A DNA stretch of 64,000 nucleotides from a virus (IMGVR_UViG_3300032893_000009:54882-118881), one strand, 5' to 3'; shown: positions 3,580-12,271, counted from the first letter of the stretch. Numbers and translations are program-made. Notes: generated by a model not told the origin, from the letters alone.

Positions 3580-6390
3580 ATGAGACTGCTGTTCACGAGT
3601 GATTGGCAGGTTCATTTCAGTAACATGCTGGAGTGTGAACTTTCGCTGGAGGAATTGCTGGCCGCCGCCGACAAGTACAAGCCTGCGGTGATCATCCACG
3701 GCGGCGACATGAAAGAGGACTACTCGCCTGTGGACGTGGAGGTGGTGAAGTTTGCCGTCCGGGCAGTGCGCCGCATTCGGGAGGCCGGGCACCGGTTCAT
3801 CATCAATCTGGGCAACCACGACCGCATCAGCCAGTCGAGCGAGTCCAAGGACTGGCTGGATGTGCTGGCCGCCGCCGGGGCTGAGGTGGTCACCAAGCCT
3901 GCCATCAAGAAAATCGGGAATTTGGCCCTGTGCTGCCTTCCGTTCACGGCGGACAGGGAAATGCTCATCAAGGGGGCAAAAGCCCTGCTACGGGCTTCTG
4001 CGGGCCACCACGGGCCTAAAATCCTGCTCTTCCATACCGAGATTGCCGGTGCGGTGCTGAATTCTGCTGGAAGGCTGGGCCACGGCCCCACCCCAGAGGA
4101 GCTGGGCTTCGATCAGTACGACGCCTGTTTCGGCGGCCATATTCACAACCACCAGAGGATCAGCGAGAACAGCTGGTATATCGGAGCCCCGTTTGCGCAG
4201 GACTGGGGCGACGCCAATTCCAGCCGGGGTCATCTGCTAGTAGATGTAGTACAGACGGTGGGGGTGAAGCAGCTGCGCACTGATATTCCTCACTGGTACG
4301 ACGTGGGCTATCTGGAGGAGAACAAGATCACCCCCGAGGCCGGAGCCTACATCCGGTCCAAGGTGCCGGTGACCAGTCGCCGCATCACCGATCAGCTGCG
4401 CGAGGAAGAGGAGCGTATTCGTGCGAAGTACGGCGAGGTGCGGGTTCACACCGTTCCGGTGCTGGTGGACGAGACCCCTGATCAGATGGTGCTCAAGGGT
4501 GCCACCGACCGGGAGAAGATCGAGCAGTACGTGGCAGCGACCATCACCGAGCAGCACCGCTTCGAGCCCGCGCAGGCGGTCAGCTACATGGAGTCCAAGC
4601 TGCAGGGTCTGAAGGAGGGCGCGCAGGGCGGCGATCTGCATTTCGTGGGCGTGGAGGCGCATAACGTTCTGGTGTTCGAGGACGTGAAGATGCGGCTGGA
4701 GAAGCTGGGACTGGTGCTGGTGCGCGGGGAAAGCGAGGACTGGCCCGGGCGCTCCAACGGCACCGGCAAGAGCAGCCTGCTGAGTCTGGTTCCGATTGCC
4801 ATGTTCGGGGTGGTGCCCAACAAGAAGCAGAAGGCCGATGCGTGGGCTTACGAGCGCGACGAGGCTCCGGCTACGGTGCGCTTGTTGTTGCAAGACGCAG
4901 CCAAGCGCAAGATCGAGATCATCCGGGGCCGCAGGCCGCACCTGATTCAACTGCGCATCGACGGTGAGGACAAGTCTTCAGGCATCCGAGGCACTGGCAA
5001 GAACGAGACACAGGGCCTCATCGAGCAGGTGACCGGCTACGATATGCAGATGCTGATGAACGCCGTGTACATCGATCAGGCGGTGGCCAACAGCTTCGTA
5101 TTCGGCACCCCCAGCGGACGCATGGACCTGATTGCCCGCTTCCAGAACCTCGAACGCTTCGACAAGGCTCTTGCGGCGGTGGGCGCGGATTACAAGCGCT
5201 GGGAAGGAGCCGTACCACCGTTGACCGCCCAGATTGAATTATGGGAGCAGGAGATTGATGGGCTGAAGGACGAGCTGCATGCAATCGAACAGGAGCAGAA
5301 GTCGAACTGGGGCGAGCAGCTGAAGGAGGAGCAGGCCAAGCTGGGCAACCTCGTGGAACAGCATGCGGCGCTGTCCGGTGTGGCTGCCACCTATGCGGAG
5401 ATGCAGCGTGAGCTGGACGATCTGCTTGCCGACCGTCATAGGGAGCTTGCAGATGTGGAGAAGCTGGACCGGCAGGTGCATGTGGCCAAGGACCGGGCGG
5501 AGCGCGGACGCGAGCTGGTGAGGGCTGGGCAGTGCCCCACCTGCGCGCAGCCCACCAAGAATCTGGGCGACACGCTGGTGAAGAGCTTCGAGAACAAGGC
5601 CAAGGAGATCGAGAGCATAGCACTGCGGCACCGGGACGCGGTAGACGGGTTGGACCGGAAGGTGGCCGATATTTCCACGAAGCTGGGCAAATTCCAACTG
5701 CAGATGACAGGATTGGAAGGCGAACTGAGCGTCAGCCGTGGCCGGGTGCGCGATCTGCAGAAGGTTGCTGACGAAGAGGCTGAGCGCAACCAGACCCGGG
5801 CGGCCAAGATCGAGCGCATGTCTTTCGAGCTGGCTTTGAAGAAGCGCTACCGCAGGGCGGCGGTCGCAGCGCGGCAGGAACTGATCGTCGGGCTGGAGAT
5901 GCTGGAGTATGCAAAGAAGGCCTTTCACCGCAGCGGCATTCCGCTCTACCTTTCCGTGGGGCTGTGCCCGCTGCTCAATCAGGCTGCCGATGAGTACAGC
6001 GAGATTTTTACGGATGGCAAGCTCAAGGTGACCTTCCGCGTCGAGGACGGGGAGTTTGTGGTGGACGTGGTCAACCCGGTGGGCTCGGGGACCACCGAGG
6101 GCCAGTCTGCCGGTGAGTCGGCGATGGCTGGTCTCATCGCGGCATTTTCCGTGCGCGAGGCCGCGCCCAAGACCAATCTGTTGATCTTGGATGAGCCGGG
6201 CACGCATCTGGACCCCGAGGGGTGCCGCCAGTTTGCACGGGGAATTCTGAAGCTGAAGGACCGCTTCGAGACCATCATGCTGGTCACGCATAATGCTTAT
6301 ATTGCGTCACTTCTCTCTGGTGAAACGGTCTACACTGTACGGAAGCGGAGCGGACGAAGCAAGCTCTATCTATCATCAAGGAGAGGGTAA
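3580..6390 (+). CDS. Fused Mre11-Rad50 (SbcD-SbcC) nuclease/ATPase
   Basis: One polypeptide of 936 residues carries both halves of the double-strand-break processing complex. The N-terminal ~300 residues are a calcineurin-like Mre11/SbcD nuclease: TSDWQVH, HGGDM, LGNHDR, FHTE and GGHIHNH give the metal ligands. The remainder is Rad50/SbcC: Walker A SNGTGKSS near residue 395, coiled coils on either side of a CPTC zinc hook at 652-655, signature QSAGES, Walker [13 protein letters not shown] and H-loop VTHN. In cells and in T4 (gp46/gp47) these are separate proteins. ATG 3580 is chosen because GAGGA lies 5 nt upstream. The gene is longer than two minimal phage subunits combined. Confidence 0.9.
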
Positions 6391-9901: not shown

Positions 9902-9966
9902 GCGTGAGCCGAATGGCCTCTGTTCTCTGCTTAAGAAAACTCGGAGGCCTGACAACTTGCCCACGT
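9902..9966 (+). ncRNA. Y RNA 1 (Ro-binding module only)
   Basis: The lower stem pairs 9902-9908 with 9960-9966, with one A.C mismatch (9907.9961). C9909 is bulged and CGA (9910-9912) pairs with UUG (9957-9959). A copy-specific upper stem GGCCUC (9915-9920) pairs with GAGGCC (9944-9949). The loop begins UGUUCUCU, and the 3' core strand reads ACAACUUGCC. This order (bulged C, CGA, stem, GUUAUCU-like box, stem, ACUUG) matches the Ro60-binding end of animal Y RNAs as I remember human Y1. The insert is a short loop with no tRNA-like body. The start coincides with the predicted promoter start site. Confidence 0.75.
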
Positions 9967-9975
9967 CAAAAGTTT

Positions 9976-10118
9976 TGCGAGAGCCGATGTGATTCTGTTC
10001 TCTGGGGGCTGCGCCCGCAAGGGCATCTAGGTTCAAGTCCTAGTTCCCCGACGTGTCGGGGAATGGTGAAATGGTAGACACACAGCTTTTGATCGGAGTC
10101 CGACAACTTGCCCTCGCA
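9976..10118 (+). ncRNA. Y RNA 2 with full tRNA-like module (class II type)
   Basis: Lower stem 9976-9983 pairs with 10111-10118 (one A.C mismatch); bulged C9984; CGA 9985-9987 pairs with UUG 10108-10110; upper stem GAUUC 9991-9995 pairs with GAGUC 10096-10100. Above it sits a permuted tRNA-like fold. Anticodon-stem strands GGCUG (10007-10011) and CAGCU (10083-10087) pair. There is a variable arm with a GCAA loop and a T arm CUAGG-UUCAAGU-CCUAG (10027-10043). The acceptor UUCCCCG (10044-10050) pairs perfectly with CGGGGAA (10057-10063) across a 6-nt cap, and the D arm is GUG/CAC with a GGUAGA loop. The body looks like tRNA-Leu/Ser. There is no free acceptor end and no proper anticodon loop, so it cannot be a working tRNA. 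Confidence 0.85.
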
Positions 10119-10123
10119 TGAAG

Positions 10124-10216
10124 TTCGGTATGAGCCGGATGAATTGGGTTATCCAACTTGACAATGGATGAGACTCCAATCTCATTTATCCAGTTCAACA
10201 ACTTGCCCATACCGGA
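10124..10216 (+). ncRNA. Y RNA 3 (hairpin insert)
   Basis: The lower stem is the longest in the array: 10124-10134 pairs with 10206-10216 (A.C mismatch at 10133.10207). C10135 is bulged and CGG (10136-10138) pairs with UUG (10203-10205). The upper stem UGAAUUGG (10140-10147) pairs fully with CCAGUUCA (10190-10197). The box GUUAUCC follows the upper stem. The insert is a simple imperfect hairpin (AUGAGA/UCUCAU core) with a loop unlike a T loop, so no tRNA mimicry is visible. Confidence 0.75.
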
Positions 10217-10222
10217 AGGAAA

Positions 10223-10366
10223 GGCACGAGCCGACAGAGGTTGGTTATCTGCCAAACTGCAGGTCGCGGGTTCAAATCCCGCCTTCCGGGCAACCGGATG
10301 TAGCTCAGCTGGCTAGAGCAGCAGAGGCCGAAAGGCCATACCCGACTTCAACAACTTGCCCGTGCT
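10223..10366 (+). ncRNA. Y RNA 4 with full tRNA-like module
   Basis: Lower stem 10223-10230 pairs with 10359-10366; bulged C10231; CGA 10232-10234 pairs with UUG 10356-10358; upper stem GAGGUUG (10237-10243) pairs with CGACUUC (10343-10349), then GUUAUCU. The tRNA-like body contains CUGC/GCAG anticodon-stem strands (10257-10260 and 10321-10324) and an AGGUC variable loop. The T arm is GCGGG-UUCAAAU-CCCGC. The acceptor CUUCCGG (10283-10289) is capped by a GCAA tetraloop and pairs with CCGGAUG (10294-10300, one mismatch). The D arm GCUC/GAGC has a GG-containing loop. An extra GGCC-GAAA-GGCC hairpin (10326-10337) lies where an anticodon loop would be. Confidence 0.85.
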
Positions 10367-10374
10367 GAAAGTAC

Positions 10375-10467
10375 GATGGGAGCCGACTGAGCTTCGTTAT
10401 CTGGATAACGTGAGTTCGAGTCTCACCAGCCGCAAGGCTGTTCGGAGTTCAACAACTTGCCCCCATC
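10375..10467 (+). ncRNA. Y RNA 5 with T-arm minihelix
   Basis: Lower stem 10375-10382 pairs with 10460-10467; bulged C10383; CGA 10384-10386 pairs with UUG 10457-10459; upper stem GAGCUUCG (10389-10396) pairs with CGGAGUUC (10443-10450); box GUUAUCU 10396-10402. The insert keeps only the T arm (GUGAG-UUCGAGU-CUCAC, 10410-10426) stacked on a capped acceptor-like stem CAGCC-GCAA-GGCUG (10427-10440). D and anticodon arms are missing, so this looks like a half-reduced tRNA mimic. Confidence 0.8.
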
Positions 10468-10482
10468 CTAACCCGACGGAAA

Positions 10483-10513
10483 GCTGCAGGCCGGTTTGCT
10501 TGCAGCGTAGGAG
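10483..10513 (+). promoter_or_regulatory. Leader hairpin and RBS of rsr
   Basis: GCTGCA (10483-10488) can pair with TGCAGC (10501-10506), just before the ribosome site AGGAG at 10509-10513 and the GTG start at 10519. The hairpin leaves the RBS free, and may mark a processing site between the last Y RNA and the mRNA. Confidence 0.4.
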
Positions 10514-10518
10514 AAACG

Positions 10519-12216
10519 GTGACACATAGCTATCTGAAGACCGCAACCAACCGCAAGGTTACCCCTCAGTCCCAGCCCATCCCCGGCAGCGTGCAGGTGG
10601 AGAACAACGCTGGCGGCTTCGTGTTTGAGATCGATGACTGGAAGCGCATGGAGCGCTTTCTGATCCTCGGTTCCGAGGGCAATACCTACTACTGCGACGA
10701 GCGCAAGATGACCGCGGATAACGTGACCTGCCTTGGCCGGTGCCTGAAGGCCGACGGCCATCGTTATCTGAAGCTGGTCGAGGACATCAGCGTTGCGGGC
10801 CGCGCCCCCAAGAACGATCCGGCGCTGCTGGCGCTGGCCTATGCCTTTGCTCAGGGCGATGTGGAGACGCGGCGTGAGGCCGCGCTGGTGCTGCCCAAGG
10901 TGGCGCGCATCGGCACCCATCTGTTCCACTTTGCCGACTTCGTGGACGGCATGCGTGGCTGGGGTCCGGTTCTGTGCCGCGCCGTGGCCGACTGGTATCT
11001 GGGCAAGAAGGCCGGTGATCTGGCCAGCCAGCTGCTCAAGTATCAGGCGCGCGACGGCTGGAGCCATCGTGACCTGCTGCGCCTGTCTCATCCCAAGAGC
11101 GATGAGCCGGTGATCAACGCCCTGTTTGGCTATGCGGTCAAGGGCGCTGAGGCGTTGTCCTATGGTGAGGACGAGCCCTTGCGCTTCGTCGGCGCGGTGG
11201 AAGAGCTGAAGCGGCTTCCCAAGCCTCCCGAGGCATCGAAGTCGGACGAGCACCGGGTGGTGCAGCTGATCACCGACTATCGCCTGCCCCGGGAGTGCGT
11301 GCCCACCGAGTGGCTGAATTCCAAGGCGGTGTGGGAGGCTCTGCTGCGTGGCATGCCCATGACGGCCATGATCCGCAACTTGGGCAAGATGTCGAGCATT
11401 GGATTGCTGGCTCCGTTGAGCAGCACTGCCCGCGACGTGGCGGCCCGTCTTTGCGATGAGGCAGAGCTGCGCAAGGCCCGGGTGCATCCGATTCAGGTGC
11501 TCATGGCGCTGGCTACCTACAAGCAGGGCCACGGCATGAAGGGCAGCCTGAACTGGACTCCAGTGCAGGCAGTGGTGGCTTCATTGGATGCCGCCTTCTA
11601 CAAGGCCTTCCTCAATGTCGAGCCGACCGGCAAGCGTTTCTATATCGCGCTGGACGTGTCCGGTTCAATGGGCGACGGCAACGTGGCAGGGACTCCGCTG
11701 ACTCCGCGCGAGGCCTCGGCGGCGCTGGTCATGGTGACCATGCGCACCGAGGAGCAGTATCACATCGTCGGGTTCACTAACGGTCAGTACCGCTCGATGT
11801 GGTCCAATGTCACCGGCCACGGTTCCGGCGTGACCGACCTGCCGCTGAATCCGAGCATGGACCTCACCACGGCAGTGCAGACGGTGAGCGGTCTGAACTT
11901 CGGCGGCACCGACTGCGCATTGCCCATGATCGATGCCAAGGCGCGGAAGATCGAGGCGGACGTGTTCTACGTGCTGACCGACAACGAGACGTGGGCCGGT
12001 CGCATCCATCCCTGTCAGGCGCTGCGCGATTACCGGCAGAGCACGGGCATCCCGGCCAAACTGATTGTGGCCGGGCTGACAGCCACTCAGTTCAGCATCG
12101 CTGACCCCAGCGATCCGGGCTCTCTGAATGTGGTGGGCTTCGATGCCAGCGTACCGGCGCTGATCGCCGACTTCGTGACAGACGGCAAGCAGGCCGTTCA
12201 GAACATCGAGGCCTGA
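10519..12216 (+). CDS. rsr: Ro60/Rsr ortholog (TROVE plus vWA domains)
   Basis: 565 residues, close to human Ro60 (538) and Deinococcus Rsr (~530). The N-terminal ~330 residues match the helical TROVE ring (for example LLALAYAFAQGDVETRREA, then HLFHFADFVDGMRGWG). The C-terminal half is a von Willebrand A domain with an intact MIDAS: DVSGS at 379-383, GGTDCA, and VLTDNETW. Ro proteins bind Y RNAs on the outside of the ring and misfolded RNA ends in the hole; in bacteria Rsr with a Y RNA tethers PNPase for RNA decay and acts in stress and rRNA maturation. Five Y RNAs lie immediately upstream. The start is GTG 10519 with AGGAG 5 nt upstream. No PNPase or RtcB gene is visible nearby. Confidence 0.93.
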   Translation: MTHSYLKTATNRKVTPQSQPIPGSVQVENNAGGFVFEIDDWKRMERFLILGSEGNTYYCDERKMTADNVTCLGRCLKADGHRYLKLVEDISVAGRAPKNDPALLALAYAFAQGDVETRREAALVLPKVARIGTHLFHFADFVDGMRGWGPVLCRAVADWYLGKKAGDLASQLLKYQARDGWSHRDLLRLSHPKSDEPVINALFGYAVKGAEALSYGEDEPLRFVGAVEELKRLPKPPEASKSDEHRVVQLITDYRLPRECVPTEWLNSKAVWEALLRGMPMTAMIRNLGKMSSIGLLAPLSSTARDVAARLCDEAELRKARVHPIQVLMALATYKQGHGMKGSLNWTPVQAVVASLDAAFYKAFLNVEPTGKRFYIALDVSGSMGDGNVAGTPLTPREASAALVMVTMRTEEQYHIVGFTNGQYRSMWSNVTGHGSGVTDLPLNPSMDLTTAVQTVSGLNFGGTDCALPMIDAKARKIEADVFYVLTDNETWAGRIHPCQALRDYRQSTGIPAKLIVAGLTATQFSIADPSDPGSLNVVGFDASVPALIADFVTDGKQAVQNIEA

Positions 12217-12235
12217 AACCCTCTTGCACTTCTCT

Positions 12236-12271
12236 GCCGACACTCTATCATTGGGGTGTCGGCATCTTTTT
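12236..12271 (+). terminator. Rho-independent terminator after rsr
   Basis: Perfect 8-bp stem GCCGACAC/GTGTCGGC, 12-nt loop, then ATCTTTTTG. It ends the Y RNA-rsr operon 20 bases after the stop codon. Confidence 0.8.

What the first reader, a model, noticed from the sequence alone, without database searches (positions are those of the whole stretch)
9902..12216. Five tandem Y RNAs in one operon with a phage Ro60 (Rsr) gene
Seen: five units with the same core order (bulged C, CGA:UUG or CGG:UUG helix, upper stem, GUUAUCU-like box, ACAACUUGCC strand). Each is closed by lower and upper stems whose bases differ from unit to unit but still pair, including one A.C mismatch at the same place in all five. 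Such covariation is strong evidence for a conserved RNA fold. Known: animal and bacterial Ro proteins bind this end of Y RNAs, and bacterial rsr genes often have one or two Y RNAs upstream. Inference: a phage ribonucleoprotein system with a multi-member Y RNA set, perhaps to redirect host RNA decay or protect phage RNAs. An array of five is, as far as I know, unusual.
Basis: partly seen in the sequence, partly recalled or inferred. Interest (0 to 1): 0.95.

Follow-up and report, generated by a model that had tools for sequence, protein, structure and literature searches.

The report
Phage Ro60 with five Y RNAs
A phage carries a gene for the RNA-binding ring protein Ro60 and, directly in front of it, five different small partner RNAs (Y RNAs), two of which contain a complete but rearranged tRNA; the family is real, but such clusters turn out to be common in phages and bacteria.

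Summary
Confirmed: five tandem Y RNAs (9902-10467, + strand, 7-8 nt apart) precede a full-length Ro60 gene (10519-12216) in a 118.9-kb phage record. The paired arms covary. A covariance model built only from these five units found 82 matches beside Ro60 genes in other phages (81 on the Ro60 sense strand) and 83 in bacteria (82 sense). Across 76 distinct viral sequences 94% of pair cells pair, against 64.5% in shuffles.

Not confirmed: that an array is unusual. With an expanded model, 80 of 94 phage/viral and 69 of 80 bacterial Ro60 loci have units; 10 and 13 of them have five or more, and one contig has about eleven.

De-permuted, both are called tRNA by ARAGORN (0/200 shuffles of unit 2). Unit 4 is the known YrlA type. 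Unit 2 is class II, Leu-like, with a long variable arm. Unit 5 keeps only a T-arm/acceptor minihelix; units 1 and 3 have no tRNA part.

Most likely mechanism, partly inferred: one transcript is cut into five RNAs that bind the phage Ro60; the tRNA-like ends dock tRNA- or RNA-decay proteins such as host PNPase. Expression, binding and function are untested.

The parts
9902..9967 (+). Y RNA unit 1: minimal, no tRNA-like module (66 nt)
   Evidence: R1 56.5 bits (built from it); R2, trained on other phages, 45.5 bits, E 1.6e-9; fold z -2.7
9975..10118 (+). Y RNA unit 2: encloses a circularly permuted class II (Leu-like) tRNA
   Evidence: R2 36.8 bits, E 3.2e-7; minimum-energy fold shows the permuted cloverleaf with a variable-arm hairpin GCCC-GCAA-GGGC; de-permuted sequence called tRNA by ARAGORN, 0/200 shuffles
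10006..10089 (+). tRNA-like module of unit 2: anticodon stem 3' strand, variable arm, T arm, acceptor 3', loop, acceptor 5', D arm, anticodon stem 5' strand (approximate limits)
   Evidence: sequence and fold
10126..10213 (+). Y RNA unit 3: plain hairpin insert, no tRNA-like module
   Evidence: R2 58.0 bits, E 7.7e-13; Rfam nematode sbRNA family RF01656 28.1 bits, E 0.0026, below cutoff 38; fold z -3.7
10222..10366 (+). Y RNA unit 4: YrlA type, encloses a circularly permuted class I tRNA
   Evidence: R2 59.7 bits, E 2.7e-13; Rfam YrlA RF02553 37.3 bits, E 2.7e-6, below cutoff 69; de-permuted sequence called tRNA by ARAGORN and about 82% identical over 97% of its length to a plasmid tRNA-Trp
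10373..10467 (+). Y RNA unit 5: T arm plus short closed acceptor helix (minihelix), no D arm
   Evidence: R2 52.4 bits, E 2.5e-11; T arm GUGAG-UUCGAGU-CUCAC followed by CAGCC-GCAA-GGCUG read in the sequence
10519..12216 (+). Ro60 (Rsr) gene, 565 aa, GTG start
   Evidence: Pfam TROVE and vWA_Ro60; PDB 1yvp E 7.7e-123 over residues 16-555; Y RNA-contact residues K174, R178, H191 and MIDAS D379, S381, S383 present
12235..12264 (+). terminator-like stem-loop with T tract just downstream of Ro60
   Evidence: 13-pair stem followed by TCTTTTTG; the scan finds about as many in shuffled sequence, so weak alone

Best explanation
The phage encodes its own Ro60 ribonucleoprotein system. One transcript carries five head-to-tail Y RNAs and then Ro60; it is cut in the 7-8-nt spacers to release the RNAs. 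Each Y RNA binds the outer face of the Ro60 ring through the lower stem with the bulged C. The other end differs between units: units 2 and 4 present a permuted tRNA shape, unit 5 a T-arm/acceptor minihelix, units 1 and 3 only a hairpin. The tRNA-shaped ends tether Ro60 to proteins that recognise tRNA shape, most likely host polynucleotide phosphorylase as in the Deinococcus RYPER particle, so that structured host or damaged RNA is degraded or tRNA-binding proteins are occupied. The short units act as gates on the Ro60 channel. Shown here: gene, RNA family, fold, permuted tRNAs. Inferred: processing, Ro60 binding, partner proteins, benefit to the phage.
For: Five covarying units. Independent recovery beside Ro60 genes in phages and bacteria with near-total strand agreement: R1 81/82 and 82/83, R2 225/225 in bacteria, none of which were in its training set. 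Covariation in 76 distinct sequences. Units lie upstream or downstream of Ro60, never inside it (0 of 427). Full-length Ro60 with Y RNA-contact residues. Permuted tRNA modules. Spacers of 7-8 nt leave no room for separate promoters. Precedent for tethering: PMC8394870, PMC7790460 and PMC4726728 (read) describe Y RNA tethering Rsr to PNPase; PMC8394870 describes a tRNA-like YrlA domain modified by TruB and DusA.
Against: No expression or binding data. PNPase tethering was shown in D. radiodurans and need not hold here; the phage record has no PNPase and no RtcB, and its host is unknown. Three of five units lack a full tRNA module, so one tethering role cannot cover all. No sigma-70-type promoter was found upstream.
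Confidence: 0.6

Rival explanations
1. The tRNA-like modules are decoys or sponges: they occupy host tRNA-directed defence nucleases or sensors of tRNA fragments, and Ro60 only stabilises them.
For: Modules of different tRNA types in one array and in relatives; a subset of relatives keeps a canonical 7-nt anticodon loop, 19 viral units against 3.6 expected. PMC7790460 suggests YrlA could competitively inhibit an anticodon nuclease.
Against: In this window the anticodon loop is opened into the Y stem (units 2, 4) or absent (units 1, 3, 5), so no anticodon loop is offered; zero canonical loops in the window. The phage has no tRNA or RtcB genes that would point to a tRNA-damage arms race.
Confidence: 0.2
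2. The array is mainly a cis-acting 5' leader: Ro60 binds its own message and represses it.
For: All five Ro60-binding sites lie on the same strand within 620 nt upstream of the Ro60 start, with 51 nt between unit 5 and the GTG.
Against: In other loci 89 of 427 units lie downstream of Ro60 and 18 loci have units only downstream; complete tRNA modules are not needed for a leader.
Confidence: 0.12
3. The region is a decayed tRNA gene cluster that happens to look like Y RNAs.
For: T arms, D arms and acceptor stems are recognisable; other actinophage Ro60 genes sit near tRNA clusters.
Against: Compensatory changes in both stems, circular permutation with closed acceptor loops, retrieval of independent loci by a five-unit model, and no tRNA genes in this phage.
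Confidence: 0.02

Closest known systems
YrlA RNA (Rfam RF02553; Salmonella, Mycobacterium) with Rsr/Ro60
   Same: Y stem for Ro60 plus a permuted tRNA-like domain (T arm, acceptor, D arm); unit 4 aligns over the full Rfam model
   Different: Unit 4 scores 37.3 bits, below the curated cutoff of 69; the other four units do not match; unit 2 has a class II variable arm that the Rfam consensus lacks
Deinococcus radiodurans Y RNA and RYPER (Rsr, Y RNA, PNPase)
   Same: Ro60 gene with adjacent Y RNA, bulged-C Ro60 site
   Different: Five units of different build in a phage; PNPase tethering not shown; no PNPase gene in the phage record
Ro60 loci of mycobacteriophages, Gordonia, Rhodococcus and Streptomyces phages (e.g. 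prophiGD43A-5, Trina, Farewell)
   Same: 342 phage records have a Ro60 relative; several carry Y RNA arrays of 2-8 units
   Different: At most about 46-48% protein identity; their Y RNAs are mostly unannotated or labelled tRNA
Animal Y RNAs and nematode stem-bulge RNAs (RF01656)
   Same: Bulged C, CGA:UUG helix and a GUUAUC box at the same nine-nt spacing as human Y1 and Y4 (the human sequences recalled from memory); unit 3 hits RF01656 at E 0.0026
   Different: Below the family cutoff; animal Y RNAs carry no tRNA-like module (own knowledge)

Membership tests
Y RNA | lies beside a Ro60/Rsr gene | tested here: met
   Ro60 ORF 51 nt downstream of unit 5
Y RNA | terminal stem with bulged C and conserved Ro60-binding helix | tested here: met
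   all five units; covariation
Y RNA | bound and stabilised by Ro60 in the cell | not testable with these tools
   needs pulldown; only contact residues K174, R178, H191 of Ro60 were checked
YrlA (RF02553) | reaches the curated covariance-model cutoff | tested here: not met
   no match at gathering score; unit 4 37.3 of 69 bits
YrlA (RF02553) | permuted tRNA-like domain with T arm, acceptor and D arm | tested here: met
   units 2 and 4 only, de-permuted and called tRNA; unit 5 partial; units 1 and 3 lack it
YrlA (RF02553) | modified by TruB and DusA | not testable with these tools
   reported for YrlA in PMC8394870
RYPER particle | Y RNA tethers Ro60 to PNPase | not testable with these tools
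   no PNPase gene in the phage record; a host PNPase could serve
Ro60 protein | TROVE HEAT-repeat ring plus vWA domain with MIDAS, full length | tested here: met
RNA repair operon rsr-yrl-rtcBA | RtcB ligase encoded with Rsr | tested here: not met
   no RtcB in the 118.9-kb record, which may be a fragment

The most novel reading that the evidence does not exclude
Y RNA arrays are modular libraries of tRNA mimics: a common Ro60-binding handle is fused to permuted tRNAs of different isotypes (class I, class II Leu-like or Ser-like, minihelix, and in relatives modules with an intact canonical anticodon arm), each selecting a different tRNA-recognising partner, and phages use such libraries to redirect or blind host tRNA and RNA-decay machinery.
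Probability: 0.25. Interest if true: 0.85.

Novelty: new variant of a known kind. Interest (0 to 1): 0.55.

Why it matters
Bacterial Y RNAs are described in the reviews I could read as Ro60 tethers with one tRNA-like domain. Here a phage array combines a minimal Y RNA, a class I and a class II permuted tRNA, and a minihelix, and the same kind of mixed array recurs in many phages and bacteria. If different modules select different partners, one locus allows a direct test of what Y RNA ends recognise and why phages keep Ro60. The five-unit model also opens a way to hundreds of Y RNAs that Rfam's gathering threshold does not report.

Tried and rejected
The close-relative scan with the protein alone found nothing in viral contigs, so an alignment of phage Ro60s was used. 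Megablast of the first 25 kb against known phages found no match. My first motif-plus-stem descriptors were too strict or too loose and were replaced by covariance models. Automatic class I/II sorting of modules by variable-arm length was noisy because the anticodon stem can be picked wrongly; I rely on the fold and the explicit de-permutation for units 2 and 4 only. In one search ARAGORN also accepted a class I reading of unit 2, so its class II assignment rests on the variable-arm hairpin and Leu-like D arm. De-permuted unit 2 had no match among plasmids. An intact anticodon arm was sought in the window units and not found. The decayed-tRNA-cluster idea was rejected. The key primary papers (Chen 2014; Sim and Wolin 2018) were not held, so I could not check whether multi-unit arrays are already described there.

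Full report
OBSERVATION. The region 9902-10467 holds five units on the + strand, each with the order lower stem, A.C mismatch, G-C, bulged C, CG(A/G):UUG, upper stem, GUU(A/C)UC box, variable insert, ACAACUUGCCC. Lengths are 66, 144, 88, 145 and 95 nt, and spacers are 7-8 nt. On the aligned arms 96.3% of cells pair against 80.4 +/- 3.0% in shuffles (0/500), with 15 doubly changed cells against 5.8; sliding one strand drops pairing to 28-50%. The lower stem pairs in every unit at every position although four of its five positions change on both sides. Single-unit folds are more stable than shuffles to varying degrees, z -1.75 to -3.74.

RO60. ORF 10519-12216 matches TROVE and vWA_Ro60, the Ro60 structure 1yvp at E 7.7e-123 over residues 16-555, and Rsr 2nvo. 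By that alignment K174, R178 and H191 correspond to K170, R174 and H187 of the 1yvp chain. PMC4030889 names H187 as essential for Y RNA contact; the other two are from my own knowledge. K174 and R178 are invariant and H191 is in 13 of 14 phage Ro60s; the MIDAS residues D379, S381 and S383 are invariant.

INDEPENDENT RELATIVES. Model R1, built only from the five units, finds exactly the five units in the window. In 94 phage or viral Ro60 loci it finds 82 matches at E < 1, 81 on the Ro60 sense strand, the best at E 1.6e-8 in Mycobacterium phage Farewell. In 80 bacterial Ro60 loci it finds 83, 82 on the sense strand. Neither strand nor position was given to the search, so this agreement is strong. 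Over the 82 viral matches (76 distinct) 94.0% of cells pair against 64.5 +/- 0.9% in shuffles, with 389 doubly changed cells against 111.7; that alignment was fitted to the model, which favours the structure. Model R2, retrained on these, finds 232 viral matches, 231 sense (partly training data), and 225 bacterial matches, all sense and none used for training. Of 427 units at E < 0.01 none lies inside Ro60; 338 are upstream and 89 downstream. A DNA pattern with no reference to Ro60 also retrieved contigs with arrays, 26 of 94 loci having Ro60 in the fetched stretch.

HOW UNUSUAL IS FIVE. Units per locus at E < 0.01: 80 of 94 phage or viral loci have at least one and 10 have five or more; 69 of 80 bacterial loci have at least one and 13 have five or more; the maximum is eight. 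L249 has about eleven. Some viral loci are near duplicates (for example L028/L030), so counts are not independent. Five is above the typical one to four but not unusual.

tRNA-LIKE MODULES. Unit 4 aligns to the whole Rfam YrlA model at 37.3 bits, E 2.7e-6, below the cutoff of 69. Its insert reads anticodon-stem 3' strand, variable loop, T arm, acceptor 3' strand, GCAA, acceptor 5' strand, D arm, anticodon-stem 5' strand: a tRNA permuted so that its natural ends are joined by a loop and its anticodon loop is opened into the Y stem. Unit 2 has the same order, with a GCCC-GCAA-GGGC variable arm and the D arm GGUGAAAUGGUAGACAC typical of tRNA-Leu (own knowledge); its minimum-energy fold is this permuted cloverleaf. 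Put back in linear order with a filler anticodon loop, both are called tRNA by ARAGORN; 0 of 200 shuffles of unit 2 are. The class II reading of unit 2 rests on the variable-arm hairpin and D arm, since ARAGORN also accepts a class I reading in an automatic scan. De-permuted unit 4 is about 82% identical over 97% of its length to a tRNA-Trp gene on a Mycobacterium plasmid. Unit 5 has a perfect T arm followed by a short closed helix. ARAGORN finds no tRNA gene anywhere in the 118.9-kb record. Class II permuted modules are not unique to this phage: L137 (Chloroflexi) has a Leu-like one and L152 a Ser-like one.

SURROUNDINGS. Upstream are a weak glycosyltransferase-like match (Anp1, below its curated cutoff), an FkbM methyltransferase and an NAD-dependent epimerase; further upstream are SbcCD-like, clamp-loader and UvsX-like genes. 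The record has neither RtcB nor PNPase, though it may be a fragment. A terminator-like hairpin follows Ro60; no sigma-70-type promoter was found before unit 1.

MECHANISM. Shown: Ro60 gene, Y RNA family, fold, permuted tRNA modules, single orientation. Established elsewhere: in D. radiodurans Y RNA tethers Rsr to PNPase (RYPER), and the YrlA tRNA-like domain is modified by TruB and DusA (PMC8394870, PMC7790460, PMC4726728). Inferred: one transcript, cleavage in the spacers, binding of each RNA to Ro60, and docking of PNPase or other tRNA-recognising proteins by units 2, 4 and 5, with units 1 and 3 as gates. Decoy and autoregulatory readings remain open.

NOVELTY. Ro60 in phages is well known (342 records; PMC7824862; PMC7765460), and PMC7765460, citing Sim and Wolin 2018, says several phages have YrlA. 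What appears less described is the mixed array with class I, class II and minihelix modules. I could not read the primary papers, so prior description is possible. Hence: new variant of a known kind.

Noticed in passing
L003:2739-2873, L022:4389-4516, L023:2333-2469, L028:4900-5037, L020:1203-1331, L170:1137-1272, L151:5107-5242: Y RNAs of relatives that keep an intact anticodon-arm hairpin with a canonical 7-nt loop (e.g. CUGCUAA, CUGUUAA, CUCAUAA) just after the GUUAUC box, i.e. tRNAs permuted between D arm and anticodon arm: 19 viral units against 3.6 expected by shuffling (bacteria 9 against 4.6).
   Followed up: partly
L020:1794-1918 and 1927-2069, L028:4474-4617: Y RNA units that appear to enclose a tRNA in normal, non-permuted order; L028 is called tRNA-Ile by ARAGORN, the L020 ones were read by eye.
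   Followed up: partly
L004:2241-2319; L009:2643-2851; L007:5715-5803: GenBank tRNA features beside or within phage Ro60 arrays (tRNA-Thr, pseudo tRNA-OTHER, tRNA-Leu) that overlap or adjoin predicted Y RNAs and are probably mis-annotations.
   Followed up: partly
L187, L210, L242, L249: Contigs, several of them jumbo-phage size, with about four to eleven Y RNA units spread over several kb, some away from Ro60.
   Followed up: no
L008:5461-5517: A Pistol ribozyme match at 56.8 bits lies inside the tRNA cluster of Gordonia phage GMA2, near an unannotated tmRNA at 4740-5151.
   Followed up: no
window:53787-58040: A 1417-aa ORF matches portal-protein families in its C-terminal part and, separately at about 649-740, a family labelled thymidylate synthase; possibly an intein or insertion.
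   Followed up: no
window:10126-10213; L016:2777-2904; L003:2739-2873: Phage Y RNAs score weakly with the nematode stem-bulge RNA model RF01656 (E 0.0026, 0.016, 0.11) and share the CCGA-N9-GUUAUC spacing recalled for human Y1 and Y4, hinting at homology of the Ro60-binding end across bacteria, phages and animals.
   Followed up: partly
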